Shown: in pieces, positions 5,251 to 29,763 of the stretch
How the letters are laid out: every line of letters begins with the position of its first letter
Position numbering within the stretch: position 1 is the first letter of the stretch
DNA from: Herpetosiphonaceae bacterium
GTDB lineage: Bacteria; Chloroflexota; Chloroflexia; Chloroflexales; Kallotenuaceae
Assembly: GCA_013821605.1 (NCBI GenBank)
Contig: JACDGP010000008.1
Coordinates: forward strand, 1 to 64,000
Direction of reading: 5' to 3'
DNA length: 64,000 nucleotides
The notes under the pieces: generated by a model
What the model was told of the DNA's origin: nothing
The model's input: only the letters and a program-made list of their open reading frames with translations
Database searches by the model: none
Made by a program: the position numbers and the translations under genes

Positions 5251-5273
5251 GCGATGTAAAGCGAGGCGTAAGC

Positions 5274-6596
5274 ATGGCAATCAAGGATGAATCGACCGGG
5301 GCACCGGCCGTTGCTGTTGCCCCCCGCCTGCTTCCTCAGAAAAGGCGGGGGCTCGGGCGTCGGCTCTGGCCCTATCTGCTGGCACTTGGACCGGGGATCA
5401 TTGCAGCCAATGCCGGCAATGATGCTGGCGGCATTGCTACCTATGCCTCTGCCGGCGCCAGCTATGGCTACCTGTTCCTGTGGGTTATGGTCGTGATCAC
5501 GGTGTGTCTGATCGTCGTGCAGGAGCTCTGCGCCCGCCTGGGTGCCATAACAGGCAAAGGCTTCTCTGACCTGGTCCGCGAGAACTTCTCACTGCGCATG
5601 ACTGCCTTCATTCTGATGTCGGTGGTGATCGCCAATCTTGGCTTGATCGTGTCGGAATTCCTGGGTATAGCGGCCGCTGCCGAACTCTTCGGCATCAGTC
5701 GCTTCCTGGCAGTACCGGTGGCCGCAATCCTTGTCTGGCTCTTGATTACCCGTGGTTCGTATGGTCGGGTCGAAAAGATTTTTCTGACGCTTACGCTCGT
5801 TTTCTTTGCCTACATCGGCGCAGCCTTTTTGGCACGTCCCAACTGGCATGCAGCGCTCATCGGCACGGTTATTCCTACCGTCCGCTGGACGCCCGGTTAC
5901 ATTGAACTGCTGATCGCACTGATCGGAACAACTATCACGCCCTATATGCAACTCTATATCCAATCGTCGGTGATCGAGCGTGGTGTGACTGCGGATGAGT
6001 TGCGGTATACCCGCTTTGATGTCATAGCCGGAGCGCTCTTCTCGGACCTGATCTCCGGCTTCATTATCATCGCGACCGCTGCCACGCTGTTTCCCCGCGG
6101 TATCGCCATCAAGACCGCAGCCGATGCGGCTCAAGCCCTGCAGCCGATCGCGGGCCAGTATGCTCAACTCTTATTCGGCGTCGGGCTGTTGGGTGCATCT
6201 CTGCTGGCAGCCGGTGTCTTGCCGTTGTCTACGACGTATGTGCTGAGTGAAGCTCTGGGCTTTGAGCGTGGTGTTTCACGCTCGTGGCGTGAGGCCCCGA
6301 TCTTCCTTGGGTTGTTTACGGTTTTCACGGCCTTGGGAGCCGTCGTCGCCTTGCTGCCCAACCTACCGATCATTCCGGTGCTTCTAGGAGTCCAGGTGTT
6401 AAATGGCCTGCTGCTGCCCATCGAACTGTTCGCAATTTTGCGGCTGATCAACAACCGGGAATTGATGGGGCAGTATGTCACCAAAGGGCTTTACAAAGGG
6501 TTTGCCTGGAGCATTGCTATCGTGGTTAGTCTTCTGTCCTTGACGCTGATCGGCGTTACGATCCTCGGTTGGTTTGGTGTTAACTTCGGCAGCTAG
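5274..6596 (+). CDS. Nramp/SLC11-like transporter with altered metal site
   Basis: The 440-residue polytopic protein has about 11 hydrophobic segments and matches the Nramp (SLC11) fold. The TM1 metal motif, normally DPGN, reads D50-A-G-G here. The TM6 motif, normally MPH, reads T222-P-Y. The Asp is kept, but the soft Met ligand and the Asn are lost. Loss of the Met has been described for Mg2+-selective SLC11 relatives, and the gene directly follows a protein with Mg2+-sensing MgtE-N/CBS domains, so Mg2+ transport is a reasonable inference. Transport of Mn2+ or Fe2+ like classical Nramp is less likely. It is the second gene of a three-gene operon. Confidence 0.8.
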   Translation: MAIKDESTGAPAVAVAPRLLPQKRRGLGRRLWPYLLALGPGIIAANAGNDAGGIATYASAGASYGYLFLWVMVVITVCLIVVQELCARLGAITGKGFSDLVRENFSLRMTAFILMSVVIANLGLIVSEFLGIAAAAELFGISRFLAVPVAAILVWLLITRGSYGRVEKIFLTLTLVFFAYIGAAFLARPNWHAALIGTVIPTVRWTPGYIELLIALIGTTITPYMQLYIQSSVIERGVTADELRYTRFDVIAGALFSDLISGFIIIATAATLFPRGIAIKTAADAAQALQPIAGQYAQLLFGVGLLGASLLAAGVLPLSTTYVLSEALGFERGVSRSWREAPIFLGLFTVFTALGAVVALLPNLPIIPVLLGVQVLNGLLLPIELFAILRLINNRELMGQYVTKGLYKGFAWSIAIVVSLLSLTLIGVTILGWFGVNFGS

Positions 6597-6607
6597 TGGA
6601 GTACTTT

Positions 6608-7753
6608 ATGGTTCAACCTATGCAGGTCTACGATAAACCTTCGATCAGTCGTCCTGCTACTATACGGCGAACATGGCTCGTCATCGCCGTGCTCCTTATC
6701 TTGGCCCTCATCGGTGCCTTCGGTAACGCCTGGGATTTATACTGGCATATCATGATTGGTCGTGATACGTTTTGGATTCCCCCGCATACGATGATGTATA
6801 CCTCCATTGCCTTGAGCGGCCTTATAGCAGCGGGCACGGTGCTCCGTGACACGTTGCGTGATCAGGGGGCAGTGGGCCAAGTACGGCTGCTTGGTTTCCA
6901 TGCGCCGCTCGGCTATTTTGTCCTCGGCTTTGGGGTCCTGCAGATGGTGCTGTCTGCACCGTTTGATGACTGGTGGCATCGGATGTACGGTGTTGATGTC
7001 ACGGTATGGAGTCCACCTCACCTCATCGGTTTCTCCGGTGCTACTGTCATGCTGGTAGGGCTCATCATTCTGATCTTAACTGAACAGCACTATTTTGGGG
7101 TCTACTCTGGAATGCGTTTTTGGTGTCTGGCCCTGGTGTTTGCTTTGGTCGTACGTTGGGTCACCTTTCTCAATTCCACAAGCCTCGCGCTCTCTTGGTT
7201 TCTGCGCCCGGATGGCTATGCTATCGTAGGGCCATGGGCAGGCTGGTGGGTGTTGTGGGCCAGCTTGTTTATGGCTTGGATTTTTGTGGCGAGTGCGCGC
7301 TGCATAAAGGATCGTGCTCCCTGGCACTTCCCGGTTGCAGTTTGTGTGTTGGCGCTGGTTCTGCGTGGCTTCGAGTTCCCTGTGAGCGCGGTGGGCTTCC
7401 GTCTGATCTTACCCTGGGGTACACAAACCTTACATCATCCGTTTCGCCCGCTGTTTGATTATGATCTTGGCTTATGGGTGACGACGATCGTGCTGGCGTT
7501 GCCGACCATAGTCCTAGCTCTGCTTAGCCGCTGGGAACAGCCGTGGAGCACGCGACGGTTTGGCCTAACAGGCGGTCTAAGCTGGGGTTTCTTGCTCGCC
7601 CTGCAATTTCTGTGGGCACGACCCGTATTTCATCTCGTTGCCTTTAAGGTTGATGTGCAATTGGAGGTTGTGCTTGTGGCACTGCTGACCGGTGCGGTGG
7701 GGGGTCTCATCGGTGCTTATCAGGGCGAGTGGCTGTGGCATCTTCAATCATAA
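6608..7753 (+). CDS. Unrecognised membrane protein with duplicated WH...PPH motif
   Basis: I do not recognise this family by name. The 381-residue product has about nine hydrophobic segments. Two copies of a motif occur near the first membrane helices: W46-H47-x3-G51-x-D53-x2-W56-x-P-P-H60 and W123-H124-x3-G128-x-D130-x3-W134-x-P-P-H138. The 78-residue offset suggests an internal duplication, and the His/Asp set suggests a bound metal or cofactor. The ATG at 6608 is chosen because GGAG lies 6 nt upstream; an in-frame GTG at 6596 overlaps the Nramp stop. Its place in the operon ties it to divalent metal handling. No function is assigned. Confidence 0.75.
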   Translation: MVQPMQVYDKPSISRPATIRRTWLVIAVLLILALIGAFGNAWDLYWHIMIGRDTFWIPPHTMMYTSIALSGLIAAGTVLRDTLRDQGAVGQVRLLGFHAPLGYFVLGFGVLQMVLSAPFDDWWHRMYGVDVTVWSPPHLIGFSGATVMLVGLIILILTEQHYFGVYSGMRFWCLALVFALVVRWVTFLNSTSLALSWFLRPDGYAIVGPWAGWWVLWASLFMAWIFVASARCIKDRAPWHFPVAVCVLALVLRGFEFPVSAVGFRLILPWGTQTLHHPFRPLFDYDLGLWVTTIVLALPTIVLALLSRWEQPWSTRRFGLTGGLSWGFLLALQFLWARPVFHLVAFKVDVQLEVVLVALLTGAVGGLIGAYQGEWLWHLQS

Positions 7754-7837
7754 GAGGTGGTGGTTCAACCCTTGCAATCAAGCCCATCTGATTGCGGCCG
7801 AACATTGTTGCTAGGCGTGGTACACTAAGTCGTGCAG

Positions 7838-7860
7838 CGAGGGGGCTTCTAGGCCCCTCG
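7838..7860 (+). other. GC-rich hairpin before the first kimA-like gene
   Basis: Inverted repeat CGAGGGG (7838-7844) and CCCCTCG (7854-7860) with a 9-nt loop, 25 nt before the GTG start. No T-tract follows. It could end the upstream metal operon or act in the 5' UTR of the permease gene. It is too small to be a ydaO-type c-di-AMP riboswitch. Confidence 0.35.
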
Positions 7861-7885
7861 TTGTGCTGTTTGTAGGAGAAAATGT

Positions 7886-9835
7886 GTGGGCGTCACACCT
7901 GAGGAACGTCAAGTAGTAGCCGAGCCGGAACGGCATGCTATTCGTGAATTGCTCGTAGGACGACCGCTTGATTCGGCATCAGCGGCCCATCAAACAATTC
8001 GTAAATTTGTTGCATTGCCGGTCTTTGCCTCCGACGCCCTGTCGTCGGTTGCCTACGCTACCGAAGAAATCTTACGTGTCCTGGCCCTGGCCGGCGGGGT
8101 TGGCTTGGCCGCCTTTTCGTTATCAATCCCCATTTCGGTCATTATTGTTGGCTTGCTTATCGTGCTGACGCTGAGTTACCGCCAAACGATCTTTGCCTAC
8201 CCGAGTGGCGGGGGTGCCTATATTGTAGCCCGCGATAATCTCGGTGAAAGCCCCGCCCAGGTCGCGGGTGCGGCGCTGCTGACCGACTATATCTTGACCG
8301 TCTCGGTAAGTATCGCGGCGGGTGTTGCGCAGATTACTTCGGCATTCCCGATGCTTACGCCTTTCCGTGTGGAGATTTGTCTTGCTCTGATCTGGCTGAT
8401 GACTGTCGTTAACCTGCGGGGTGTTAAGGAGTCCGGTGCTGCTTTTGCCGGCCCCACCTATTTTTTCCTCGGTATGACAGCCTTGTTGTTACTGACGGGG
8501 TTCTGGCAGCTCACGCATGGTTCGCTTGGAACCGTCACCGATGTGCGTATGAATGTCATCCCAATCACCAGTACCCTCACGATCCTATTATTGTTACGTG
8601 CTTTTTCAAGTGGCTGTACAGCCTTGACCGGAGTGGAAGCCATTTCGAACGGCATACCGGCCTTTAAAGAGCCTAAGAGCCGTAATGCTGCTACGACTAT
8701 GGCCTTCATGAGTGGTATTTTGGGCGTCACCTTTATTGGCATTACTGTCCTGGCACGCCGCATTCAAGCTGTACCCGCCGACGAGACTGTGATCTCACAG
8801 CTAGCACGTACCATCTTTGGGCGCGGCCCGCTCTACTTTGCCATGGCCGCTGCTACGACCGCAGTGTTGATTATGGCTGCTAATACGTCATTCGCCGATT
8901 TTCCGCGCCTTAGCGCCTTGCAAGCTGGCGATGGCTTCTTGCCTCGGCAGTTGACCAATCGGGGGTCGCGGCTGGTCTTCTCCTGGGGTATTCTGGCCCT
9001 TGCCATCTTGGCTTCGTTGCTGATTCTCTTGTTCAATGGCGATGTATCGCGCTTGATTCCTCTCTATGCGATTGGTGTGTTTCTCAGCTTTACGCTATCA
9101 CAACTCGGTATGGTCATTCGCTGGCGCAAAGTATCGCGCCTTCGGCCAGATGAAGAGATACAGAGCAAGGGAACGGTCTTGCGGCCTGATCGCTGGTGGT
9201 GGGCCAAAGGGACGGTTAATGGTCTGGGTGCGCTTCTTTCATTAGTTGTAACGCTGGTCTTTGCCTTCTCTAAGTTCACTGAAGGAGCCTGGGTCACGGT
9301 GTTGTTGATCCCGTCCCTCGTCTGGCTCTTCTTCCGCATTCATAAGCATTACCGCGATACGGCACGTGCCTTGAGTCTCGAAAAGGTCTGCGATCCTGAC
9401 CTGCGAGGTCACGCTATCGAAACGATTCTGCTCATCGATAACGTCCACCGGGGAACGCTGCAGCAGGTACGGTTCGCCGAGTCGCTGGGACGGCCCTGGA
9501 TCGCCGTTCACATTGGGGCTGACTCGGCCAAAGCTGAACGTACACGTGAGCGCTGGAATCAATTTGTTGGTCATCGGGGCGAACTTACGGTGATCGAGTC
9601 GCCGTATCGTAACCTGGTCGGCCCGGTACAGCAGTTGATCAAGCAATTCCAGGCCGAGAACCCCGGCGTCTTTATTAACGTGGTGTTGGGTCAACTCGTA
9701 ACGACTTCGTGGTGGACGCAGTTGCTGCATCAAAACACTGGGCCGCTCTTTAAGTTCACGCTCCAACGCATGCATAACGTTGTGGTAACCGATGTCCATT
9801 ATCTGCTAGAGCCAGATGGTACGGTAGACGTCTAG
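7886..9835 (+). CDS. kimA: KimA-like potassium permease, copy 1
   Basis: The 649-residue APC-superfamily transporter has about 12 membrane segments (residues 40-475) and a cytoplasmic C-terminal domain starting around IETILLIDNVHRGT, as in the K+/H+ symporter KimA. Residues equivalent to the K+ site of Bacillus subtilis KimA are present with correct spacing: D50 and Y57 in ASDALSSVAY, and D134-Y135-x2-T138 in DYILT. KimA is inhibited by c-di-AMP in known systems. The start is a GTG with AGGAG 7 nt upstream. A DUF4118 kinase and KdpE-like regulator follow 104 bp later. A close paralogue lies at 12292-14235. Confidence 0.85.
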   Translation: MGVTPEERQVVAEPERHAIRELLVGRPLDSASAAHQTIRKFVALPVFASDALSSVAYATEEILRVLALAGGVGLAAFSLSIPISVIIVGLLIVLTLSYRQTIFAYPSGGGAYIVARDNLGESPAQVAGAALLTDYILTVSVSIAAGVAQITSAFPMLTPFRVEICLALIWLMTVVNLRGVKESGAAFAGPTYFFLGMTALLLLTGFWQLTHGSLGTVTDVRMNVIPITSTLTILLLLRAFSSGCTALTGVEAISNGIPAFKEPKSRNAATTMAFMSGILGVTFIGITVLARRIQAVPADETVISQLARTIFGRGPLYFAMAAATTAVLIMAANTSFADFPRLSALQAGDGFLPRQLTNRGSRLVFSWGILALAILASLLILLFNGDVSRLIPLYAIGVFLSFTLSQLGMVIRWRKVSRLRPDEEIQSKGTVLRPDRWWWAKGTVNGLGALLSLVVTLVFAFSKFTEGAWVTVLLIPSLVWLFFRIHKHYRDTARALSLEKVCDPDLRGHAIETILLIDNVHRGTLQQVRFAESLGRPWIAVHIGADSAKAERTRERWNQFVGHRGELTVIESPYRNLVGPVQQLIKQFQAENPGVFINVVLGQLVTTSWWTQLLHQNTGPLFKFTLQRMHNVVVTDVHYLLEPDGTVDV

Positions 9836-9939
9836 TGTGGGTAATGCCTTTGGCTCCGATCAATTGATGCTCAGGGCGCATGTGCGAGTAATGGTGCATG
9901 TGCTCTGCGTGGTCTAGATAGAGGCATCAAGCAGTCTAT

Positions 9940-11397
9940 ATGTTGCGACATGGAGCGTGGCGGTTTGCGGTTGCGGTTGGAAGCGTTGCTGCCTTAACGG
10001 TTGTCTTGCTGCTACTCCAGCCGTATTTAGCTGTTGGTACGCTCGTCTTATGCTATGTTCCACTTGTGCTCGTTGTAGCGATTCAGTTTGGCCGTCGTGC
10101 CGCTATTCTGTGCTCCTTCGCCTCTTTTCTTGCGTATAACTTCTTCTTTGTACCTCCGCTGTATACGCTCTTTGTTGCTCGACAGCAAGACGTTATCGAA
10201 TTATTCATCTTTTTGAGCGTGTCACTGCTTGCCGGTACACTGGCGTCGCGGGAGCGCGCGTTGGCTCTCGCTGCGACACGGCGTGCCGAACAAATGACCG
10301 TCCTCTACCAGCTCAGTCAAGATGTGAGTGCCGCAGTGGACGACAGCGTGATCCTGCCACAAATTGCTGCTGCTGCGCTCCAGATGCTACCAGCCTGCGG
10401 AATCGAAATTGTGCTGGTACCACGCGAGGGACGATCTTCTTCAACGACCCGGGCAGGGCGGACCGATGGAGACACCTTCGCTTCGGTTCCGGTCGTTGCC
10501 GGTGGACTGACGTTAGGTGAACTGCACGTGTGGGGTCTTCAACATGGCAGTGCTGAAGAAATTGACACGCTACTGCGAACGATTGCTAATCATGTTGCTC
10601 TCGTTGTTGAGCGCTCACGTGCAGTCGCGGCAGTCTGGCAAGCCCGCTCGTTACGGGATGCCGATCTCTTGAAAGGTGCTTTGCTATCGTCGGTATCGCA
10701 CGATCTGCGAACTCCACTAGCCGTGATCAAAGGTGCTGCCAGCAATTTGCTAGATACCGAAGTAAGTTGGAATCCTGCGACACAACGTATTTTCGCTGAG
10801 ACGATCAGCAGTGAGGCCGACCGGCTGAACCGCTTTGTTCGTAACCTGCTCGAAATGTCGCGGCTGGAAGGGGGTACGATGCAACGTCCTCGCTCGTTGA
10901 TTGACATAAGTGATGTAATTGGTGCGACGCTGCATCGCCTGCACCCTGTCCTTACCGGTCATCCAGTCGAGGTTGTGATTGCGCTCGACCTGCCACCAGT
11001 CGCCATTGATGCCGTTCAGCTTGATTTGGTACTCAGTAATTTATTAGAAAATGCTGCCAAATTCTCGTCGGATGCGATGCCAATAGAGGTGAATGGCCGC
11101 CGGCATGGTGATGAATTACTTATTAGTGTGCTTGATTGGGGTTCCGGCATACCTGACGCGGCGTTTGAGCACATATTTGAGAAATTCTACCGCTGGGCCG
11201 GCCCAGAGCATGGACCGGGGGGCTCCGGCTTGGGCCTGGCTATCTGCCAGGGCATCGTAACGGCGCATGGTGGACACATCTGGGCAGAAAATAGGCCGGA
11301 CGGGGGTGCGGCTTTCCGCTTTACTTTGCCTATCGCTGCAGAAACGCTAAATCCTCTAGCGCTGCCCCTCGGGCAGTCGGATGGGAAAGCGGTATGA
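9940..11397 (+). CDS. DUF4118 sensor histidine kinase (KdpD C-terminal-like), copy 1
   Basis: The 485-residue kinase matches the C-terminal half of KdpD. It has four hydrophobic segments in a DUF4118 domain (residues 8-105, with the characteristic AYNFFFVPPLYTL), a GAF-like linker (about 115-230), a HisKA domain with the phospho-acceptor His254 in SVSHDLRTPL, and an ATPase domain with N box NLLENAAKFS and G boxes DWGSGIP and GGSGLGLAI. It lacks the N-terminal KdpD ATP-binding and USP domains. The stop overlaps the start of the response regulator by 4 bp, so the two are translationally coupled. The upstream kimA-like gene is the likely target or partner. Confidence 0.9.
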   Translation: MLRHGAWRFAVAVGSVAALTVVLLLLQPYLAVGTLVLCYVPLVLVVAIQFGRRAAILCSFASFLAYNFFFVPPLYTLFVARQQDVIELFIFLSVSLLAGTLASRERALALAATRRAEQMTVLYQLSQDVSAAVDDSVILPQIAAAALQMLPACGIEIVLVPREGRSSSTTRAGRTDGDTFASVPVVAGGLTLGELHVWGLQHGSAEEIDTLLRTIANHVALVVERSRAVAAVWQARSLRDADLLKGALLSSVSHDLRTPLAVIKGAASNLLDTEVSWNPATQRIFAETISSEADRLNRFVRNLLEMSRLEGGTMQRPRSLIDISDVIGATLHRLHPVLTGHPVEVVIALDLPPVAIDAVQLDLVLSNLLENAAKFSSDAMPIEVNGRRHGDELLISVLDWGSGIPDAAFEHIFEKFYRWAGPEHGPGGSGLGLAICQGIVTAHGGHIWAENRPDGGAAFRFTLPIAAETLNPLALPLGQSDGKAV

Positions 11398-12092
11398 GTG
11401 GCCCACGTGTCTTGATCGTCGACGACGAGCGTCAAATGCGGCGCCTCTTGGAAGCGACATTGCTGGGTCATGACTATACCGTCTTGGTCGCGGCCACTGG
11501 TCGCGAAGCCTTGAATCTTGCGGCGACGGCACGTCCAGAAGTCATCGTGCTTGACTTGGGACTCCCTGATCTTGATGGCTTAGAGGTCTGTAGGCGCATT
11601 CGTGCCTGGTCTCAGATACCGATAATCGTGGTTTCCGCCCGTGACGAGGAACAAGCCAAAGTGGAAGCGCTCGATCTAGGGGCGGACGATTACTTGACCA
11701 AGCCTTTTGGTATGAATGAACTCTTGGCTCGCTTAAGAGTTGCGCTCAGACACGTTAGCCCCGTTGCGGCGAACGACCCTGTTGTACGCTTTGATAGTAT
11801 CGAAGTCGATTTTAACCGTCGCATGGTGTTGCGCAACGGTGCTGAGATTCACTTGACACCGATCGAGTATAACTTGTTGCGTTTACTCGTGACCAATCCT
11901 GAGCGGGTCCTCACGCAAAAGTATGTGCTACGCACGGTCTGGGGACCCGGCTATGAGGCTGAGGCTCAAACCCTGCGTGTCCATATCGGGCAGTTACGTC
12001 GTAAAATTGAGCCCGATCCAACTCAGCCTTCGTATATTCAGACCGAAGTCGGGATTGGTTATCGCTTCCGCATGCCCTCCAGCATAGCTTGA
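11394..12092 (+). CDS. KdpE-like OmpR-family response regulator, copy 1
   Basis: The 232-residue product has a receiver domain (about residues 4-118) with acidic pair D10-D11, phospho-acceptor D54 in VIVLDLGLPD, and the conserved Lys in DYLTKPF. A winged-helix DNA-binding domain follows (about 130-228, LTPIEYNLLRLLV and GIGYRF). This is the OmpR/KdpE layout. It starts within the last codons of the DUF4118 kinase gene (ATGA overlap), so it is almost certainly the cognate regulator. By analogy with KdpE, it may control K+ uptake genes, but no target site is proven here. Confidence 0.9.
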   Translation: MSGPRVLIVDDERQMRRLLEATLLGHDYTVLVAATGREALNLAATARPEVIVLDLGLPDLDGLEVCRRIRAWSQIPIIVVSARDEEQAKVEALDLGADDYLTKPFGMNELLARLRVALRHVSPVAANDPVVRFDSIEVDFNRRMVLRNGAEIHLTPIEYNLLRLLVTNPERVLTQKYVLRTVWGPGYEAEAQTLRVHIGQLRRKIEPDPTQPSYIQTEVGIGYRFRMPSSIA

Positions 12093-12174
12093 GTACGCGT
12101 TCCTCGACGTACCTCGTCGGCTGTTCCATAGGCAGGCCTGACGTTGGATGCCTCTTTACACCTTCTTTATTCGT

Positions 12175-12203
12175 TTGAACTACTTCCATAGATCATCTTT
12201 ATA
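12175..12203 (+). promoter_or_regulatory. candidate promoter of the second kimA-like unit
   Basis: TTGAAC (12175-12180), 17-bp spacer, TTTATA (12198-12203), in the 199-bp gap before the second kimA-like gene. The start codon lies about 90 nt downstream. A second TATAGT hexamer follows shortly after, so the exact start is uncertain. Confidence 0.4.
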
Positions 12204-12291
12204 CCGCCAAGAGTATAGTTCCCTGTGGTCCATTGCAGGCCGTTATGTGCGTGCTAGGGACCAAATGCTTTGTACCAGCAGGGAAGGATAT

Positions 12292-14235
12292 ATGCTTCAA
12301 CCGGATACCGAACGTATCGCTCAGCCCGAACACCATCCGCTCCGGGATTTGTTGGTCGGTCGGCCATTAACGACGGCCTCAGCTCCTCATCAAACGATCC
12401 GCAAAATTGTAGCGCTGCCGGTGTTTGCCTCGGATGCCCTCTCGTCTGTGGCCTACGCCACCGAAGAAATCCTGCGGGTGTTGGCCCTCGCGGGGGCAGT
12501 GGGGATAGCTGCCTTCCATCTCTCGATCCCGATCTCGATCATTATCGTTGCCCTGCTCGTCGTCTTAACACTCTCGTATCGCCAGACAATTTTCGCCTAT
12601 CCTGGTGGGGGCGGTGCGTACATTGTCGCTCGCGATAATCTGGGCGAAGGACCGGCCCAGATGGCAGGGGCAGCATTACTCACCGACTATATCCTTACGG
12701 TATCGGTCAGTATTGCTTCGGGCGTTGCACAGATTACATCGGCATTTCCAGCGTTGATTCCATGGCGGGTTGAAATCTGCCTGCTGCTCATTGGGTTCAT
12801 GACGATCGTGAACCTGCGTGGGGTCAAAGAATCAGGTGCGGCCTTCGCCGGACCGACCTATTTCTTCCTCGGTATCACCAGCTTGTTGCTGGCTACAGGT
12901 GGTTGGCAGTTGTTGCATGGTACGCTCGCTACAGTGACCGGCGTCACCACCAATGTTACCCCCGTTGTCGGAGCCCTGACCCTGTTGCTGCTGCTCCGGG
13001 CTTTTTCGTCCGGCTGTACGGCCCTGACGGGTGTGGAGGCGATCTCCAACGGTATCACGGCCTTTAAAGAGCCGAAAAGCCGTAATGCCTCGGCCACGAT
13101 GGTAGCGATGAGCGTGATCCTGGGCATCACATTTATTGGTATTACCATCCTGGCCAATCAGATTCATGCGCTGCCGGCCGAAGAGACCGTGATCTCGCAA
13201 CTCAGCCGCACCGTCTTTGGCCGTGGTCCGCTGTATTACGCTATGACAGCCGGCACGACGCTGGTTTTGATTATGGCAGCGAATACGTCGTTTGCAGATT
13301 TTCCCCGGCTGTGTGCTCTGCATGCCGGCGACGGCTTTCTGCCGCGTCAACTGACGATGCGTGGTTCGCGCCTGGTTTTCTCGTGGGGTATTGTGGCGCT
13401 GGCGCTCTTCGCGTCGAGCTTAATTCTGTTATTTAATGGCGATGTATCGCGCTTAATCCCGCTGTATGCGATCGGCGTGTTTCTCAGCTTTACGCTTTCC
13501 CAGACCGGGATGGTCGTGCGCTGGCGGAAAATCTCCAAACTTAGTCCGGGCGAAGAAGTGCACGGTGAGGGGACCGTGCTACGACCTGACCGCTACTGGT
13601 GGGCGAAGCAAGGCATTAATGGCCTAGGTGCTGTGCTGTCCTTCGTTGTGATGCTAGTTTTCGCTGCATCGAAGTTTACGGAGGGCGCGTGGGTGACGGT
13701 GATTCTGATTCCCTGCCTCGTGTGGGGCTTTTTCCGCATTCACCACCATTACCGCACCACAGCCAAGGCACTCAGCTTGGAGAAGGTGGGGAATCCTGAC
13801 TTACGCGGTCATGCGATCGAGACGCTGCTGCTGGTCGACAACGTCCATCGCGGCACGCTCCAGCAGGTCCGTTTTGCCGAGTCGCTTGGCCGGCCGTGGA
13901 TAGCGCTGCATGTGTCGGCTGACTCGTCTAAGGCGGAACGCACCCGTCAGCGGTGGGAGCAATTTATTGGCAATCGTGGCGAACTGTATATGATCGAGTC
14001 GCCCTACCGTAACTTGGTCGGTCCCGTGCAACAAGTCATTAAAGAGATCCAGGAGAGCAACCCTGGCATCTTTGTCAACGTGGTGTTGGGTCAGTTGGTG
14101 ACGACGTCGTGGTGGACGCAGTTGCTCCACCAAAACACCGGCCCACTGTTTAAGTTCTCGCTCCAACGCATGCATAATGTGGTCGTTACCGATGTGCATT
14201 ACCTGCTAGAGCCGGATGGAACGATCGAGGTATGA
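12292..14235 (+). CDS. kimA: KimA-like potassium permease, copy 2
   Basis: The 647-residue paralogue of the 7886-9835 product differs by scattered substitutions and keeps the same layout: about 12 membrane segments and a C-terminal cytoplasmic domain. The K+-site residues are D48 and Y55 in ASDALSSVAY and D132-Y133-x2-T136 in DYILT. The C-terminal 130 residues are nearly identical to copy 1, which points to duplication. The ATG at 12292 has GGGAAGG just upstream and gives a length matching copy 1; a longer in-frame extension to 12148 has no homologous residues. It overlaps the next small gene by 4 bp. Confidence 0.85.
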   Translation: MLQPDTERIAQPEHHPLRDLLVGRPLTTASAPHQTIRKIVALPVFASDALSSVAYATEEILRVLALAGAVGIAAFHLSIPISIIIVALLVVLTLSYRQTIFAYPGGGGAYIVARDNLGEGPAQMAGAALLTDYILTVSVSIASGVAQITSAFPALIPWRVEICLLLIGFMTIVNLRGVKESGAAFAGPTYFFLGITSLLLATGGWQLLHGTLATVTGVTTNVTPVVGALTLLLLLRAFSSGCTALTGVEAISNGITAFKEPKSRNASATMVAMSVILGITFIGITILANQIHALPAEETVISQLSRTVFGRGPLYYAMTAGTTLVLIMAANTSFADFPRLCALHAGDGFLPRQLTMRGSRLVFSWGIVALALFASSLILLFNGDVSRLIPLYAIGVFLSFTLSQTGMVVRWRKISKLSPGEEVHGEGTVLRPDRYWWAKQGINGLGAVLSFVVMLVFAASKFTEGAWVTVILIPCLVWGFFRIHHHYRTTAKALSLEKVGNPDLRGHAIETLLLVDNVHRGTLQQVRFAESLGRPWIALHVSADSSKAERTRQRWEQFIGNRGELYMIESPYRNLVGPVQQVIKEIQESNPGIFVNVVLGQLVTTSWWTQLLHQNTGPLFKFSLQRMHNVVVTDVHYLLEPDGTIEV

Positions 14236-14594
14236 AAGGCAAGCGACAACCGGCTTGGTGGACACTCTACCTATGGTGTGCGGTGGGTATGGTGCTGTTG
14301 TTCGGCGAGCATTTCATGCCTGTGTCGGCGGGCTGGCACAAGCTACTAGAAGTGCTGGTCGTGCTGTGTCTCTTCGGCGTCACCGCCATCTGGCTTCGCT
14401 GCAATGCTGCAGCACTGGAAGCCGAAGCGCGCGACCGCGAGCGTCGTGCTGCAGCGGCCGGTGTTCGTCGCAATGTGCCGTTGACGCCGATCCAAAGCTA
14501 TTATTTAGACGTCATGGATCAACAGCAAGGCCGCGAGGATGCCACGTGGGTGTACACCCCACATGAACGAGCTCGATTTTCCGAACACAAGTAG
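14232..14594 (+). CDS. Small two-helix membrane protein of unknown function
   Basis: The 120-residue product is not recognised. It has two hydrophobic segments (about residues 9-28 and 38-56), then a charged, Ala/Arg-rich stretch that may be a coiled coil (AAALEAEARDRERRAAA), and a polar C terminus. It starts inside the stop region of the second kimA-like gene (ATGA overlap), so it is translationally coupled to the permease. An accessory or regulatory subunit is possible. The first kimA-like unit has no equivalent gene. Confidence 0.65.
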   Translation: MKGKRQPAWWTLYLWCAVGMVLLFGEHFMPVSAGWHKLLEVLVVLCLFGVTAIWLRCNAAALEAEARDRERRAAAAGVRRNVPLTPIQSYYLDVMDQQQGREDATWVYTPHERARFSEHK

Positions 14595-14671
14595 CCGTGG
14601 GTTTGGCAGCACTGGTCGCACGGCTACGTACGGGTAGTTGGACTGGGTGTGGATGATGAAATGGACCCCAC

Positions 14672-16120
14672 ATGCATCTAGCATGGCAGATGGTAGCTCG
14701 AATAGAGCGGTATGTGGCCCTCCGATATGGCCTAAGTATTGCCATTGTCGTCCTGGCAACTGCGCTGCTGCTCCTGATTCGAGTTGGCATCGGGCTGGAA
14801 GTCGCGAATATTTCGCTCGGCTATATCGTCGCCGTATTGCTGGCAGCCATTACCTATGGTCTTGGCGCGGGAGTGGTCGCCTCGGTCGCGGCCTTCCTGG
14901 CCTATAACTTCTTCTTTGTCGAGCCCTTATACGAGTTCACCGTTGCCAACCGGCAGGATGTGACTCGCCTTGTCCTATTTCTCGTGGTTGCCATCATTAC
15001 TTCTTCCATCGCCGCCCGGGCGCGGAGCCAAGCACAGCAAGCTCGCCATCGCGCCGAAGTGCAAGAAGCGCTGTATGAACTCAGCCAGATGATCAGTATC
15101 GAGGTTGAGGCGGCCGCGATTCTGCCCATCATTGCCCAACAGATCGTCCGCTTACTCGGCGTCGATGGTTGCATGATCGTCTTATTTGAAGGTGGCGTCC
15201 CAGGAACGACAACTGCCGGCAATGCTGGGAGCGAAGGCACTGCTGTGGTGACACCACTGCGAATCGGTGACCGTACGCTGGGTATGGTGCGCGTCTGGGA
15301 ACGACCAGCACAGATCGCAGGCCCAGAGGCGCGACGGCTCTTGGATACGCTGGCGCGCCAAGCCGCATTGGCCGTGGAACGCACGCGGCTGGCCGATGAA
15401 GCAACGCGCCTGCAGATCGTCGCCGAGTCTGATCGCACCAAGTCGGCGCTGCTCCATTCAGTGTCTCACGACCTTCGTACGCCAATCACAGCGATCAAAG
15501 GGGCCGTATCAAACCTGTTGGACGAAAGCGTCGTATGGAATGATGCTGCCGAGCAAACGTTGTTGACAACTATTGATGGTGAAGTGGACCGGCTCAACCT
15601 GCTTGTGCGCAACCTGTTGGATATGTCACGCATTGAAGCCGGCGTTTTTGTACCGCCGACCGAGTTGGCGATGCTGGAAGATGTGATCGGGCCGGTGCTC
15701 TACCGCCTTCGACGCATCACTGCCGACCGTCCACTCACGGTTGATATTCCTACCGACCTACCATTTATTCCTATGGCCGTGCCGCACGTCGATCAAATTT
15801 TCACGAACCTCCTCGAAAATGCCGTAAAATATACTCCGCCGGATACACCATTAACGATCAGTGCACGAGTCGTCAATGATACCGTCCAGGTTGACGTCGC
15901 GGATGCGGGCCCGGGCGTTCCGGCTGCAGAGCGTGAACGTATCTTTGACAAGTTTTACCGCCTCGGAGCGCCCGAAACGTCTTCCGGCGGCACGGGTTTG
16001 GGGCTCGCCATTTGCAAGTACCTAGTCGAGGTACATGGTGGTACTATTTGGACGCATCCGCGGGTGGGTGGTGGCGCAATCTTTAGCTTTACCTTGCCGC
16101 TCAGGCGGCCGCTTCCCTAA
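14672..16120 (+). CDS. DUF4118 sensor histidine kinase (KdpD C-terminal-like), copy 2
   Basis: The 482-residue kinase is a paralogue of the 9940-11397 product. It has a four-segment DUF4118 domain (residues 16-115, with AYNFFFVEPLYEF), a GAF-like region (about 130-240), His266 in SVSHDLRTPI, N box NLLENAVKYT and G boxes DAGPGVP and GGTGLGLAI. KdpD N-terminal ATP-binding and USP domains are absent. The start is an ATG without a strong ribosome binding site, so a nearby start is possible. It belongs to the second kimA-like unit, and its regulator follows 39 bp downstream. Confidence 0.88.
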   Translation: MHLAWQMVARIERYVALRYGLSIAIVVLATALLLLIRVGIGLEVANISLGYIVAVLLAAITYGLGAGVVASVAAFLAYNFFFVEPLYEFTVANRQDVTRLVLFLVVAIITSSIAARARSQAQQARHRAEVQEALYELSQMISIEVEAAAILPIIAQQIVRLLGVDGCMIVLFEGGVPGTTTAGNAGSEGTAVVTPLRIGDRTLGMVRVWERPAQIAGPEARRLLDTLARQAALAVERTRLADEATRLQIVAESDRTKSALLHSVSHDLRTPITAIKGAVSNLLDESVVWNDAAEQTLLTTIDGEVDRLNLLVRNLLDMSRIEAGVFVPPTELAMLEDVIGPVLYRLRRITADRPLTVDIPTDLPFIPMAVPHVDQIFTNLLENAVKYTPPDTPLTISARVVNDTVQVDVADAGPGVPAAERERIFDKFYRLGAPETSSGGTGLGLAICKYLVEVHGGTIWTHPRVGGGAIFSFTLPLRRPLP

Positions 16121-16159
16121 GAGACGACGGATGCAGCTTGCTCTATCGAGGAACATGTC

Positions 16160-16855
16160 ATGCCGGCACCCCAGATATTGGTCGTCGACGACGAACCGCA
16201 GATTCGGCGCTTTATCGAAGCAGGATTAAGTGCGCACGGTTATACCATTCTCACGGCTCCTAACGGCCTTAAAGCGCTCGACCTGATTGTTACAGCAGAA
16301 CCAGACCTCGTGGTTTTAGATTTGGCGATGCCTCTACTGGACGGCCTCGGTGTGATCGCTCGCGTGCGCGAATGGTCATCCGTGCCAATCATTGTGCTGA
16401 GTGTACGCGACGATGATCGTGGTAAGGTCGAAGCTCTCGACCTTGGGGCGGACGACTATCTAACGAAGCCCTTTAGTATGAATGAACTGTTGGCGCGCAT
16501 TCGTGTGGCATTGCGCCACGCCGGACAGCGGAATGCGCCCGCGCAAGCCGTGCTCAGGGCCGGTGGACTGGAGATGGATGTGCCCCGGCACATCGTTACA
16601 GTAGATGGCACCGAAGTACATCTTACTCCTACCGAATTCGATCTGCTGCGCATGCTCTTAAGCAACGCTGATCGGGTCATTACCCAACGACAATTACTCA
16701 CCGAGGTCTGGGGGGCCGGCTATGAAGATGATATCCAGACGCTGCGCATCTTCGTCGCGCAATTGCGGCGCAAGCTCAAGGAAAACACCGCTCAGCCGCA
16801 CTACATCATGACGGAGCCCGGCGTGGGCTATCGACTTCGCACCGAACCCATATAA
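16160..16855 (+). CDS. KdpE-like OmpR-family response regulator, copy 2
   Basis: The 231-residue regulator has a receiver domain with D10-D11, phospho-acceptor D54 in VVLDLAMP, and Lys in DYLTKPF, followed by a winged-helix domain (LTPTEFDLLRMLL, GVGYRLR). GAGGA lies 7 nt before the ATG. It is the expected partner of the DUF4118 kinase just upstream and a paralogue of the 11394-12092 product. Unlike copy 1, the kinase and regulator genes do not overlap. Confidence 0.9.
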   Translation: MPAPQILVVDDEPQIRRFIEAGLSAHGYTILTAPNGLKALDLIVTAEPDLVVLDLAMPLLDGLGVIARVREWSSVPIIVLSVRDDDRGKVEALDLGADDYLTKPFSMNELLARIRVALRHAGQRNAPAQAVLRAGGLEMDVPRHIVTVDGTEVHLTPTEFDLLRMLLSNADRVITQRQLLTEVWGAGYEDDIQTLRIFVAQLRRKLKENTAQPHYIMTEPGVGYRLRTEPI

Positions 16856-23870: not shown

Positions 23871-25619
23871 ATGACTACTCTCGGCTGGCTCCAAATTGCC
23901 ATCTATTTTGCGCTACTTCTCCTGCTGACGAAGCCGCTGGGTGTGTATATGTACCGCGTCTTTACCGGCGAACGCACGTTTATGCATCCGGTCATACGTC
24001 CGCTTGAACGCTTGACGTACCGCTTGATGGCCGTCCGTGAGGATGAGGAACAAGACTGGGTTGGCTACACCGTGGCGGTGTTGCTGTTCAGTTTTGTGGG
24101 TGTGGTCGCTACCTACCTCCAGATGCGCATACAGGCCGGACTGCCGCTCAACTACGGCATGGCCCCTGACGGCAAGACGCCGTTTGCCAACGTGCCTGCT
24201 GGGCCGGCCTTTAATACAGCAGTCAGTTTCTTGACCAATACGAACTGGCAGTCGTACTCTGGCGAGTCGACGATGAGCTATCTAACACAGATGATGCAGC
24301 TCACCTTCCATAACTTCGTATCGGCGGGTGCCGGTGCCGCCGTCGTATTGGCTCTAATCCGTGGCTTGACGCGACGTCAAACAAACAAGCTAGGCAATTT
24401 CTACGTCGATCTCACGCGCTGCATATTATATCTCCTGCTGCCGATTTGCATCGTCTATGCCTTGTTCCTGGTGTCACAAGGCACGATTCAAAATCTGAAG
24501 CCGTACGTTGCTGCCGCGACCATTCAAGGCACGCCCCAGATCGTTCCGATGGGACCAAATGCATCGCAAGAAGCGATCAAGATGCTGGGTATTAATGGTG
24601 GTGGTTTCTTCAACGCGAACTCGGCTCACCCGTTAACCAACCCGAGTCCGCTGACGAACTTTATCGAGATGCTATCGATCTTCAGTCTTCCCGCCGGATT
24701 GACCTATATGTTTGGCCGGATGGTGGGGCGTCAGCGCCAGGGCTGGGCCATTTTTGCCGTCTTCTCAGCCTTGTTCCTAACTGGCGTGGCCGTGACCTAT
24801 CCTGCCGAGGCCGCCGGGAATCCGAACCTGCGCAATGTGGGCGTGGATGACCGGGTGAGCGCTGGGCAAGCCGGTGGCAACATGGAGGGCAAAGAAACCC
24901 GCTTCGGTATCACCCACTCGGCGCTATTCGCGGTTATTACGACGGATGCTTCATGCGGCGCAGTCATCGCGGGCCACGATAGCTTTACCCCACTCGGCGG
25001 CGCGGTCCCGCTGTTCAATATGATGTCGGGTGAGGTGATCTTCGGCGGCGTGGGCTCGGGGCTCTACGGAATGCTGGTCTTTGTGATTGTCGCCGTCTTC
25101 GTCGCTGGATTGATGGTCGGGCGCACACCGGAGTATCTCGGCAAGAAAATCGAAGCTTTCGATATAAAGATGGCGACTCTGGCGATCCTCGTCCCTTCTT
25201 TTGTGATTTTGCTTCTGAGTGCTGTCGCAAGCGTCCTGCCGGCCGGTACATCCAGCATTTTTAACGGTGGTCCGCATGGCTTGAGCGAAATATTGTACGC
25301 CTATTCCTCGGGCGTGGCCAACAATGGCTCTGCCTTCGCCGGCCTAGGCGCGAACACCGACTACTACAACAGCACGATCGGCGTGGCGATGTTCCTGGGA
25401 CGCTTCTTTATTATCATCCCGGTGCTCGCGCTCGCGGGGTCGTTGGCCAGCAAAAAGTTGGTACCTGCATCGTCCGGCACCTTCCCGACCGACGGTCCAT
25501 TGTTTGTGGGTCTGGTCATCGGCGTGGTCGTGATCGTCGGCGGGCTCACCTTCTTCCCGGCACTGGCACTCGGTCCGCTCGTGGATCATCTGCTGATGAA
25601 TGCGGGGCAGCTGTTTTAG
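23871..25619 (+). CDS. kdpA: KdpA, K+-binding channel-like subunit
   Basis: The 582-residue polytopic subunit carries the K+ selectivity filter of the Kdp ATPase. The four P-loop motifs are visible: [28 protein letters not shown] with the following [10 protein letters not shown], and NNGSAFAGL. Length is close to the family norm (about 560-580). GGAG precedes the ATG. It takes up K+ at high affinity together with KdpB, KdpC and KdpF. Confidence 0.97.
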
Positions 25620-25664
25620 GCAAAGAGCCATGCGACCTCGTTTTGTTACAACAGGAGAAAACCA

Positions 25665-27752
25665 GTGGCAATAAATCAACGTGCCTCACGACGAGCGTTA
25701 TTCGAACCCAAGATTGTGCGTCGAGCGATTGTCGACTCGTTTGTGAAGCTGAATCCTTTTACGTTGTGGCGCAATCCCGTGATGTTTGTGGTTGAGGTGG
25801 TGAGTGTCATCGTCACCGGCTTATGGCTGCGTGACCTCATTACCGGTGCCGAACCGGCAGGCTTTAGCGCAGCAATAGCCGCCTGGCTCTGGTTCACAGT
25901 ATTGTTTGCTAACTTTGCGGAAGCGATGGCGGAGGGCCGCGGCAAGGCCCAGGCCGACGCGCTGCGACGGACGAAAACCGATGCGGTTGCCAAGCGACTG
26001 CGGGGCTATTCACCGAATGACGGGGCAGGGGCACAGATTGAAGAAGTCCCCGCAACGGCTCTGCGCGCAGGTGATTATGTGGTCTGTACGCCCAATGATC
26101 TTATTCCTGGTGACGGCGACATCGTTGAAGGTGTCGCATCGGTCGACGAGTCGGCAATCACCGGCGAGTCTGCCCCGGTCATCCGTGAGTCAGGCGGCGA
26201 CCGTTCGGCCGTGACCGGTGGGACTAAGGTCTTGTCGGACCGCATCGTGATCCGCATTACCTCTAATCCTGGCGAAACGTTTTTGGACCGCATGATCGCG
26301 TTGGTCGAAGGCGCGGAACGGCAAAAAACGCCGAATGAGATCGCGCTGAACATTTTGCTGGCGGGCTTGACCATTATCTTCTTGATCGCGGTCGCCACGA
26401 TGCTACCGTTCTCGATCTATAGTGTCAATGCGGTCAAAGCCGGCTCTGCCGTCTCGGTTACGATCTTGATCGCACTTCTTGTGTGCTTGATCCCTACGAC
26501 CATCGGTGGTCTGCTGTCGGCCATCGGTATCGCGGGGATGGACCGGCTGATTCAATACAATGTGTTGGCAATGTCAGGTCGTGCGGTCGAAGCTGCGGGC
26601 GACGTCGACACGCTGCTCTTGGACAAAACCGGGACGATCACTCTGGGCAACCGCCAGGCGGCCGAGTTCATTCCATTGGCCGGCGTCACAGACTACGATC
26701 TGGCCGACGCTGCACAATTATCATCGCTGGCCGATGAAACGCCCGAAGGGCGCTCGATCGTTGTGCTGGCTAAGGACAAATACGGTATCCGCGGACGAGA
26801 AATGCAGGACATTGGCGCTGAGTTCGTCCCATTCACGGCGCTTACACGAATGAGCGGCGTGAACTTGAACGGGTCGCAGATCCGCAAAGGTGCCGCAGAA
26901 TCGGTCGTCACCTATGTGCGTGAACAAGGCGGAGCCGCACCTGCTGCCCTGAACGATATTGTCGAGCGGATTGCGCGGGCCGGTGGTACGCCATTGGTCG
27001 TCGCGCGCAATCATGAGCCGCTCGGTGTGATCTATCTGAAAGATATTGTGAAGGGCGGTATGCGCGAGCGCTTCGATCAACTGCGCGCGATTGGCATCCG
27101 TACCGTCATGATTACCGGAGACAATCCGCTTACGGCGGCAGCGATCGCCAAAGAGGCTGGTGTCGACGATTTCTTAGCCCAGGCAACGCCCGAGGCCAAA
27201 ATGAGCTTGATCAAAGAAGAGCAGGCCAAGGGTAAGCTCGTTGCCATGACCGGCGATGGTACGAACGATGCCCCAGCTCTGGCGCAGGCCGACGTCGGCG
27301 TGGCCATGAACACGGGCACGATGGCGGCCAAGGAAGCCGGCAACATGGTCGACCTTGACTCGAATCCGACGAAGCTGATCGAAATCGTCGAGATCGGCAA
27401 GCAATTGCTCATCACCCGTGGTGCACTGACCACCTTCTCGATTGCCAACGATGTGGCCAAGTATTTCGCGATTATCCCGGCCGCTTTTGCGGCAACCTAT
27501 CCGGCGCTTAACGCACTCAACATAATGCAATTGCATTCGCCCGAGTCGGCGATCCTGTCGGCGGTCATTTTCAATGCCTTGATTATTATCGCGCTGATCC
27601 CGTTGGCGCTGCGCGGCATCAAATATCGGGCGATCGGCGCAGCGGCGCTGTTGCGTCGCAATTTGTTCATCTATGGGTTGGGTGGTGTGATCGCGCCGTT
27701 CGTCGGCATCAAAATCATTGACCTTCTCTTGACCGTGTTTGGACTGGCATAA
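25665..27752 (+). CDS. kdpB: KdpB, ATP-hydrolysing subunit
   Basis: The 695-residue P-type ATPase subunit has an intact TGESAPV actuator motif, [10 protein letters not shown] phosphorylation site, and [10 protein letters not shown] hinge. The membrane motif [15 protein letters not shown] is typical of P1A ATPases. It couples ATP hydrolysis to K+ transfer from KdpA. The start is GTG with AGGAG 7 nt upstream. In contrast to the P-type ATPase at 17210-19993, all catalytic motifs are canonical. Confidence 0.97.
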
Positions 27753-27788
27753 ACACGCACCTGTGTACGTATCACTAGGAATAAAGTA

Positions 27789-28460
27789 ATGGCTGTATAC
27801 GAAAATAAAGAAGCAGCGCCGCGTTCGACGTTTGGACGACAACTCTTGACGGCGGTGCTGGCGACGATTGTGTTGACGGTCTTGACCGGCGTGCTCTACC
27901 CACTCCTAATCACAGGCATCGCGCAGGTCCTGTTTCCCGGCCGAGCTAACGGCTCGCTGATCCAGCGTGATGGTAAGGTGATAGGCTCGGAGTTGGTCGG
28001 CCAGAACTTTAGCGTCGACCAATTCCTACTCAAAAATACGGTGCCACCGACTCAAACGCAGGCTCTCCAGCAATATCCATACTTTTTCAGTCGGCCATCA
28101 GCGGCGGGGGCAGGCTATGATGGTACTGCTTCCTCATTCTCCAATTTGGGGCCGACCAGTCAGACGTTGATTGACCTAGTCAAGGGACGGGTCGCTGCGA
28201 TCAAGCAAGTGACTGGCCAGGGTGCCGCAAACGTGCCAGTTGATCTGGTGACGGCATCTGCCAGTGGTCTTGACCCCGAGATTAGCCCGGCAGCCGCAAC
28301 ATATCAGGTGCCCCGGATTGCCCGAATACGTGGGCTGCCCGTTGATCAAGTCCAGCAACTGGTGAACCAGAATACACGCGGCCGGTCATTAGGTTTCTTA
28401 GGTGAGCCGGGCGTCAATGTGCTGAAGCTGAATCTGGCACTCGACGCCGCTAAACACTAA
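27789..28460 (+). CDS. kdpC: KdpC, accessory subunit
   Basis: The 223-residue protein has one N-terminal membrane helix (about residues 14-38) and an external domain with family strings [33 protein letters not shown], and [18 protein letters not shown]. KdpC stabilises the KdpA-KdpB complex and affects ATP affinity. It follows kdpB by 36 bp. It is somewhat longer than the E. coli protein (190). Confidence 0.96.
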
Positions 28461-28563
28461 CTATCAGTTATAATATAATAAGCAGAAATCATGTGTTTGA
28501 TCAGTGCGCGATCATGTGGATGCCTCGCAGCCCACGTGGTCGCGTCGTTCGTGTATTGAAGCT

Positions 28564-29763
28564 ATGCCCTGGAATGAAACAACTCGGAAAACGCCAGAAG
28601 AGCTGCTGGCTCAGGTTCAACACGAGGCGCGGGGCAAATTCAAGCTCTTTTTAGGGGCCGCTGCCGGTGTCGGTAAAACTTATCGCATGCTCGATGAGGC
28701 GCGCATCCGCAAGCGCGAAGGGCTCGACGTCGTCATCGGTTGGATCGAAACGCACGGTCGTGCCGAGACTGAGTCGTCGCTCGCGCAAAGCGTGGAACAA
28801 ATGCCGATGATTCCTCCTCGGGCGCTCCCCTACAAAGGGACGATCCTCCAGGAGATGGACCTCAATGCGATCATTGCCCGGCAGCCACAGTTGGTCGTCG
28901 TCGACGAACTAGCGCATACCAACGCCGCAGGCTCTCGCAACACTAAGCGCTACCAAGATGTGTTCGAGTTGCTGGACGCGGGCATTAACGTCTACTCGGC
29001 GATGAACGTGCAACACCTCGAAAGTTTGAACAATGTTGTCCAGCAGATTACCGGCGTACAAGTGCGCGAGACGGTGCCGGATCGGGTATTGGAGCGGGCC
29101 GACGAGATCGAGCTGATCGATGTATCGCCTGCGGAGTTGATCGAGCGTCTGAAGGCGGGCAAGATTTATAAGCCTGACCGGGCAAACGCGGCTCTGCAAA
29201 ACTTCTTTCGTTCAGGCAATCTAACGGCGCTGCGCGAACTGGCACTACGTCGGGCGGCCGGTCATGTCGAACAACAGTTAGATGCCCATCGCGCGACTGA
29301 GCATATCACTGCCTCATGGCCGGCTGCCGAAAGGGTGATGGTCTGTGTGACGGCGGACCCATTTTCTCAGAAGCTGATCCGCAGCGCGGCCCGCTTAGCA
29401 TTGAGCATGCACGGCGAATTATGGGCTGTGTATGTCGAGCAGCCGGGCGAAGCGACACGACGCTCGACCGCTGCTGCCCACCAATTGGAAACCAACCTTT
29501 CTCTCGCCCGAACGCTAGGGGCCGAGGTGGTGGCCTTGCAGGAACGCGCTCTTGCGCCAGCGCTGCTCGTCTGGGCGCGCGAACATAATGTTGCTCACAT
29601 TGTTGTTGGCAAAGGAGTGCGCCCGCGCTGGCAACGCATCTTTCGCGCCTCCGTAGCGGACGACATCGTAGACGGCTCGGGGGATATTGACGTAATGGTT
29701 GTTACGCATAAGCGTCATGGTACGTCCCTTATGGATCGGGTTGGCGAGTCGAGTGCCGAGTAG
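28564..29763 (+). CDS. kdpD: Truncated KdpD: N-terminal sensor and USP domains only
   Basis: The 399-residue product matches only the N-terminal half of KdpD. Residues 20-235 are the KdpD sensor domain with Walker A GAAAGVGKT (31-39) and Walker B-like VVVDELAHTN (111-120). Residues 255-390 are a universal-stress-protein domain with IVVGKGVRPRWQR; in Staphylococcus aureus KdpD this domain binds c-di-AMP. DUF4118, HisKA and ATPase domains are absent, and no kdpE follows. The ATG at 28564 fits KdpD starts; a GTG at 28504 would add 20 residues. Truncated KdpD proteins are known in some bacteria. The missing part resembles the two DUF4118 kinases upstream. Confidence 0.9.
   Translation: MPWNETTRKTPEELLAQVQHEARGKFKLFLGAAAGVGKTYRMLDEARIRKREGLDVVIGWIETHGRAETESSLAQSVEQMPMIPPRALPYKGTILQEMDLNAIIARQPQLVVVDELAHTNAAGSRNTKRYQDVFELLDAGINVYSAMNVQHLESLNNVVQQITGVQVRETVPDRVLERADEIELIDVSPAELIERLKAGKIYKPDRANAALQNFFRSGNLTALRELALRRAAGHVEQQLDAHRATEHITASWPAAERVMVCVTADPFSQKLIRSAARLALSMHGELWAVYVEQPGEATRRSTAAAHQLETNLSLARTLGAEVVALQERALAPALLVWAREHNVAHIVVGKGVRPRWQRIFRASVADDIVDGSGDIDVMVVTHKRHGTSLMDRVGESSAE

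What the first reader, a model, noticed from the sequence alone, without database searches (positions are those of the whole stretch)
7886..16855. Tandem duplication of a KimA-like permease, DUF4118 kinase and KdpE-like regulator unit
Two consecutive units carry the same three genes in the same order. The permeases keep the residues of the KimA K+ site and share nearly identical C-terminal domains. KimA genes elsewhere are usually controlled by c-di-AMP riboswitches, and here each is instead next to its own Kdp-type two-component system. Copy 2 has an extra coupled small membrane protein. The two units may have diverged in sensing range or ion specificity.
Basis: partly seen in the sequence, partly recalled or inferred. 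Interest (0 to 1): 0.75.

Follow-up and report, generated by a model that had tools for sequence, protein, structure and literature searches.

The report
Paired KimA potassium importers beside KdpDE-like switches
This Chloroflexota genome carries two KimA potassium importers interleaved with two potassium-type two-component switches (the back half of a split KdpD plus a KdpE-like regulator) near the Kdp pump; the parts are known, but the wiring is a variant and a small unnamed membrane protein recurs at such potassium loci.

Summary
In detail: kimA1-HK1-RR1, then kimA2-SMP-HK2-RR2, at 7886-16855. Both permeases are KimA homologues with every tested B. subtilis K+-site residue intact. "Tandem duplication of the unit" is not the best reading. 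The permeases are sisters (81% identity), but kinases (44%) and regulators (56%) are far more diverged, HK1's sister is a third kinase on contig C173, and kinases and permeases fall in different phylogenetic neighbourhoods. The array looks like a mosaic: older own-order TCSs plus a later-duplicated Anaerolineae/Armatimonadota-type permease. Synonymous sites are saturated, so the likeness reflects selection, not recency. c-di-AMP riboswitches are rare in this order, so their absence is ordinary. HK1 and HK2 are the C-terminal half of KdpD; the N-terminal half (KdpD+Usp) follows kdpFABC at 28504-29763, a split known from Deinococcus and cyanobacteria. DUF4118-kinase/regulator pairs recur beside kimA, usually as HK-RR-kimA. 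The newest element is the small two-TM protein: homologues lie between kdpB and kdpC, or before DUF4118 kinases, in other Chloroflexota, outside any Pfam or NCBIfam family. Likely function: K+-limitation-induced K+/H+ uptake; regulation and the SMP role are inferred.

The parts
7886..9835 (+). kimA1, KimA-family K+/H+ symporter, 649 aa, GTG start
   Evidence: Only PDB hit is KimA 6s3k, E 6.5e-129 over residues 17-637; K+ and H+ site residues conserved
9940..11397 (+). HK1, DUF4118-HisKA-HATPase kinase equal to the C-terminal half of KdpD, 485 aa
   Evidence: Pfam; best NCBIfam kinase match is KdpD C-terminal region; H, N, G boxes intact
11394..12092 (+). RR1, KdpE-like OmpR-type response regulator
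   Evidence: Best PDB hit E. coli KdpE 4kny, 237 bits against 162 for the next family
12093..12291 (+). RR1-kimA2 intergenic region, candidate regulatory region; no motif shown
   Evidence: Short imperfect direct repeats only, nothing shared with the other leaders
12292..14235 (+). kimA2, KimA-family K+/H+ symporter, 647 aa from the probable ATG start (ORF opens at 12148)
   Evidence: PDB KimA E 1.6e-131; 81% identical to KimA1; K+ site conserved
14232..14594 (+). SMP, small protein with two predicted TM stretches, translationally coupled to kimA2, 120 aa
   Evidence: Homologue before HK3 on C173; homologues between kdpB and kdpC in other genomes; no Pfam/NCBIfam family
14672..16120 (+). HK2, DUF4118-GAF-HisKA-HATPase kinase, 482 aa
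   Evidence: Pfam; best NCBIfam kinase match KdpD
16160..16855 (+). RR2, KdpE-like response regulator
   Evidence: Best PDB hit KdpE, 196 bits
23696..23785 (+). kdpF, 29 aa
   Evidence: Pfam Potass_KdpF E 3.2e-9
23871..28460 (+). kdpA, kdpB, kdpC
   Evidence: Pfam KdpA and KdpC; KdpB as P-type ATPase with the TGES motif
28504..29763 (+). Short KdpD: KdpD domain plus Usp, no kinase; the N-terminal half of a split KdpD
   Evidence: Pfam PF02702 E 1.5e-95 and Usp E 1.2e-8, no HisKA; only PF02702 protein above cut-off in the genome

Best explanation
The array is a potassium-acquisition island. KimA1 and KimA2 are proton-coupled K+ importers. HK1/RR1 and HK2/RR2 are KdpDE-type two-component systems whose kinase is only the C-terminal half of KdpD. 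Each kinase most likely senses low K+ through its membrane and GAF-like region and phosphorylates its KdpE-like regulator, which activates the adjacent kimA and plausibly kdpFABC 7 kb downstream. The other KdpD half (KdpD+Usp, 28504-29763) would shut the Kdp pump off post-translationally, as the short Deinococcus KdpD does in response to c-di-AMP; KimA would itself be inhibited by c-di-AMP. The array was probably assembled as a mosaic: TCS paralogues of the genome's own order, joined by an Anaerolineae/Armatimonadota-type kimA that duplicated after the two TCSs had diverged. SMP is probably a small membrane partner of transporter or kinase. Shown: gene content, domains, residue conservation, phylogenies, recurrent linkage. 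Inferred: transport, sensing, regulation, transfer, SMP role.
For: KimA homology and intact K+ site. KdpD C-terminal-half and KdpE likeness. Both KdpD halves present and no full-length KdpD in the genome. Split KdpD with separate TCS known in D. radiodurans and the short KdpD shown to act as a c-di-AMP-stimulated serine kinase in D. geothermalis. Diadenylate cyclase present. 26 of 67 nearest KimA loci with at least 3 kb upstream have a DUF4118 kinase or full KdpD within 4 kb. KimA distance 0.33 against HK 1.90 and RR 1.42; HK1/2/3 group with own-order kinases while KimA1/2 group with Armatimonadota/Anaerolineae.
Against: No regulator binding motif shared among the kimA and kdp leaders was found and no expression data exist. 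The linkage is found in only 1 of 19 loci of the genome's own order. Several c-di-AMP pocket residues differ (NQS to QNT, A481D, W592R), so c-di-AMP control of these KimAs is uncertain. The RR tree does not resolve.
Confidence: 0.6

Rival explanations
1. An ancient block duplication of a kimA-HK-RR unit. HK1 was later copied to C173, and the permeases stayed similar through strong selection or past gene conversion.
For: Same gene order in both halves; HK1, HK2 and HK3 form one group in the first tree, 79/91; synonymous sites saturated in all three pairs; RR1+RR2 as sisters not rejected, p=0.44.
Against: KimA/HK distance ratio 0.17 against 0.31-2.72 in co-inherited trios; no conversion tracts; in the wider tree own-order kinases from other genomes sit in the same unresolved group as HK1, HK2 and HK3, while the permeases' nearest kin are Armatimonadota; no SMP remnant in the 105-bp kimA1-HK1 gap.
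Confidence: 0.22
2. The two TCSs regulate kdpFABC or other genes, and the kimA genes are only neighbours.
For: No full-length KdpD in the genome, so kdpFABC needs an outside TCS; in G327 a DUF4118 kinase-regulator pair lies divergent from kdpA; own-order kinases L231-L234 have no kimA or kdp nearby.
Against: Repeated HK-RR-kimA linkage across Chloroflexota, Armatimonadota and others.
Confidence: 0.25
3. The permeases are amino-acid transporters rather than K+ importers.
For: The only Pfam match is AA_permease_2.
Against: The only PDB hit at E<=1e-3 is KimA, over its full length including the cytosolic domain, with all K+-site residues identical.
Confidence: 0.02

Closest known systems
KimA (YdaO) of Bacillus subtilis, K+/H+ symporter (PMC6994465, PMC10284832)
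   Same: Fold, full length, K+ site, proton-coupling E233, gate residues, R337 and H579
   Different: No ydaO riboswitch; adjacent KdpDE-type TCSs; two copies; part of the c-di-AMP pocket changed
KdpD/KdpE of E. coli
   Same: Kinase domains match the C-terminal half of KdpD, regulators match KdpE best
   Different: Kinases lack the KdpD and Usp domains, and lie beside kimA instead of kdpFABC
Split KdpD systems of Deinococcus radiodurans, Anabaena and Alicyclobacillus (PMC5716572, PMC11018627)
   Same: KdpD N-half after the kdp genes, separate kinase C-half with regulator
   Different: Here the kinase halves lie with kimA genes 7-14 kb from kdp, and there are two of them plus a third elsewhere
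KdpF small membrane peptide
   Same: Small, membrane-embedded, encoded with K+ transport genes
   Different: SMP is about 100-120 aa with two predicted TM stretches and a tail, lies after kimA2 or between kdpB and kdpC, and the window has a genuine kdpF as well

Membership tests
KimA K+/H+ symporters | Full-length similarity to KimA including the cytosolic domain | tested here: met
   Residues 17-637 and 62-683 aligned, E 1e-129 and 1e-131
KimA K+/H+ symporters | K+-site and proton-coupling residues | tested here: met
   D36, Y43, T121, S125, T230, Y377, D117, E233 identical in both copies
KimA K+/H+ symporters | K+ transport activity | not testable with these tools
   Needs uptake assay
KimA K+/H+ symporters | c-di-AMP binding pocket | tested here: inconclusive
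   R337, L461, H579 kept; P479L, A481D, N580Q, Q581N, S582T changed
c-di-AMP riboswitch-controlled kimA | RF00379 upstream | tested here: not met
   No match in the window or genome
Full-length KdpD | KdpD and Usp domains fused to DUF4118, GAF and kinase | tested here: not met
   HK1/HK2 lack KdpD and Usp; these form a separate protein
Split KdpD system | Separate KdpD+Usp protein after kdp genes plus separate DUF4118 kinase and regulator | tested here: met
   serine-kinase activity not tested
KdpE response regulators | NCBIfam KdpE equivalog cut-off (325 bits) | tested here: not met
   KdpE is the best match but at 262 and 218 bits, so KdpE-like rather than certified KdpE
Tandem block duplication | Same sister relation and comparable divergence for all three genes | tested here: not met
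   KimA sisters; HK not sisters, AU p=0.0003; distances 0.33/1.90/1.42

The most novel reading that the evidence does not exclude
SMP is an unrecognised small membrane component of bacterial K+ homeostasis that binds K+ importers (KimA, KdpB/KdpC) or their DUF4118 kinase and reports transporter state or K+ flux to a KdpD C-terminal half lacking the usual N-terminal sensor.
Probability: 0.15. Interest if true: 0.65.

Novelty: new variant of a known kind. Interest (0 to 1): 0.45.

Why it matters
KimA is known mainly from Gram-positive bacteria, where a c-di-AMP riboswitch controls it. In parts of the Chloroflexota and some other phyla it instead sits beside KdpDE-type switches, often the detached kinase half of KdpD. 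That gives a testable case of how split KdpD systems divide work between transcriptional and post-translational control, and it points to an uncharacterised small membrane protein at K+ loci. I found no paper describing the kimA/DUF4118-kinase linkage in the library searched, which lacks most subscription journals.

Tried and rejected
Dating the duplication by dS: saturated, not informative. Gene conversion: third-position identity is even along kimA, longest identical run 20 nt. Known RNA in the window: none at gathering threshold. Sigma-70 promoters and intrinsic terminators: no more than in shuffles. Shared 12-mer motif among the kimA, HK and kdp leaders: none. SMP as a known Pfam/NCBIfam family: only sub-threshold hits. 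SMP20 (20111-20434) as a homologue of SMP: no. Single-sequence scan of genome contigs with KimA1: nothing, solved with an alignment. Later weak SMP hits (E 0.002-0.01) in other genomes were set aside: no K+ genes recognised beside them. Structure prediction was not used: KimA is covered by a solved homologue, and a two-helix protein folded alone would say little.

Full report
What is there. The window (contig C10 of a 5.88 Mb, 99.6% complete genome) carries at 7886-16855 two KimA genes interleaved with two two-component systems, all on the + strand: kimA1, HK1, RR1, kimA2, SMP, HK2, RR2. HK1/RR1 and kimA2/SMP overlap by 4 nt, so they are probably translationally coupled. kimA2 most likely starts at 12292. 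Named relatives are mainly Chloroflexota.

Permeases. Each protein matches only KimA of B. subtilis among solved structures, over its full length. Mapping the residues from the KimA papers shows D36, Y43, T121, S125, T230, Y377, D117 and E233 unchanged in both copies, as are R337, Y118, N237 and H579 of the c-di-AMP/inhibition network; several pocket residues differ. This gives no basis for different ion specificity. K+ transport is inferred from homology.

Kinases and regulators. HK1 and HK2 contain DUF4118, HisKA and HATPase; HK2 has a recognisable GAF, HK1's is too diverged for Pfam. Signature motifs are intact. Among NCBIfam kinases their best match is the KdpD C-terminal region. RR1 and RR2 hit KdpE best, RR1 more strongly, but both stay under the KdpE equivalog cut-off. 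The other half of KdpD, KdpD+Usp without kinase, lies at 28504-29763 after kdpF-kdpA-kdpB-kdpC. The genome holds three DUF4118 proteins in all and one PF02702 protein above cut-off, so no full-length KdpD was found. The same split is described in D. radiodurans. In D. geothermalis the short KdpD phosphorylates KdpB and is stimulated by c-di-AMP. This genome encodes a diadenylate cyclase.

Is it a tandem duplication? The permeases are sisters with full support, but four-fold sites are saturated (0.32 observed, 0.31 shuffled) and there are no conversion tracts, so their likeness reflects constraint and not a recent event. HK1 is sister to a kinase on contig C173 (100/99), and joining HK1 with HK2 is rejected (p=0.0003); this topology is still compatible with an old block duplication followed by copying of HK1. 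The stronger argument is rate: window distances are KimA 0.33, HK 1.90, RR 1.42 (KimA/HK 0.17). Pairs among L021, L032, L034, L038, L042, L043 and L046, whose three genes appear co-inherited, have ratios 0.31-2.72. Ratios as low as the window's otherwise appear only in pairs with L037, whose TCS is of another lineage. With more rows, HK1, HK2 and HK3 fall with kinases of the genome's own order (SH-aLRT 96), while KimA1/2 fall next to two Armatimonadota proteins inside a mainly Anaerolineae clade, away from the genome's other KimA on C150. I read this as a mosaic; horizontal transfer of the permease is inferred. The RR tree does not resolve.

Conserved neighbourhood. Among the 80 nearest KimA loci in named genomes, 26 of 67 with at least 3 kb upstream have a DUF4118 kinase or full KdpD within 4 kb; in 20 of 24 DUF4118 cases the kinase is upstream on the same strand, as in HK-RR-kimA. 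The order kimA-HK-RR is rarer (L097, L157; with full KdpD in L185, L197, L208). In the genome's own order the linkage was seen in 1 of 19 loci. Related loci are not independent events, so these counts are descriptive. Tandem kimA pairs also recur in other lineages. Because HK-RR-kimA is the common order, HK1-RR1 may serve kimA2 rather than kimA1. RF00379 has no hit in this genome and hits in only 3 of 60 genomes searched, on contigs other than those carrying kimA, so its absence here is not special.

Small membrane protein. SMP (120 aa) is 34% identical over 101 residues to a protein directly before HK3 on C173. A profile search over 400 phylum genomes found four further loci at K+ genes: between kdpB and kdpC in G327, G395 and G188, and a partial match at the same place in G227; one other hit (G383) is probably false. 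Another copy lies directly before a DUF4118 kinase in an Anaerolineae MAG, L175. The five scanned examples have no match above a Pfam or NCBIfam cut-off. The position evidence is good, the sequence evidence moderate, the function unknown; a membrane partner of transporter or kinase is my guess.

Mechanism. Low K+ is sensed by the DUF4118 kinases; KdpE-like regulators switch on kimA and perhaps kdpFABC; when K+ is restored, c-di-AMP inhibits KimA directly and the short KdpD inactivates the Kdp pump. Only the parts list is shown; each regulatory step is inferred from named homologues.

Noticed in passing
20555-20884 with 20933-21736 (-): A KimA N-terminal fragment (about 90 aa, up to 51% identical to other KimAs) stops being KimA-like shortly before a phage-integrase-family recombinase; it looks like a third kimA truncated by a mobile element. 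No matching remainder was found in the genome search.
   Followed up: partly
17210-19993: A P-type ATPase follows RR2; in L238 a DUF4118 kinase-regulator pair is likewise followed by an APC-like permease and a P-type ATPase.
   Followed up: partly
7815-7900: The kimA1 leader holds a strong GC-rich hairpin just upstream of the Shine-Dalgarno (MFE -32.9 kcal/mol, z -1.8); attenuator or the terminator of the upstream gene.
   Followed up: partly
4015-6596: A PRC/MgtE_N/CBS protein and an Nramp transporter precede kimA1 by two genes; MgtE_N-like genes also lie near kimA in L031, L047, L154 and L181.
   Followed up: no
L175:4681-4872 and 7085-7642: Two SMP-like ORFs flank a kimA; the second ends in residues resembling a regulator C-terminus, as if an SMP-HK-RR set had been partly deleted.
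   Followed up: no
L022, L029, L159, L179 and others: Many Anaerolineae kimA genes lie directly after a kinase of about 1100 aa, a different type without DUF4118 (dCache, HAMP, GAF, PAS in the one scanned, L029).
   Followed up: partly
L077 (contig C173): The contig ends inside RR3, so whether a kimA follows SMP7-HK3-RR3 is unknown.
   Followed up: no
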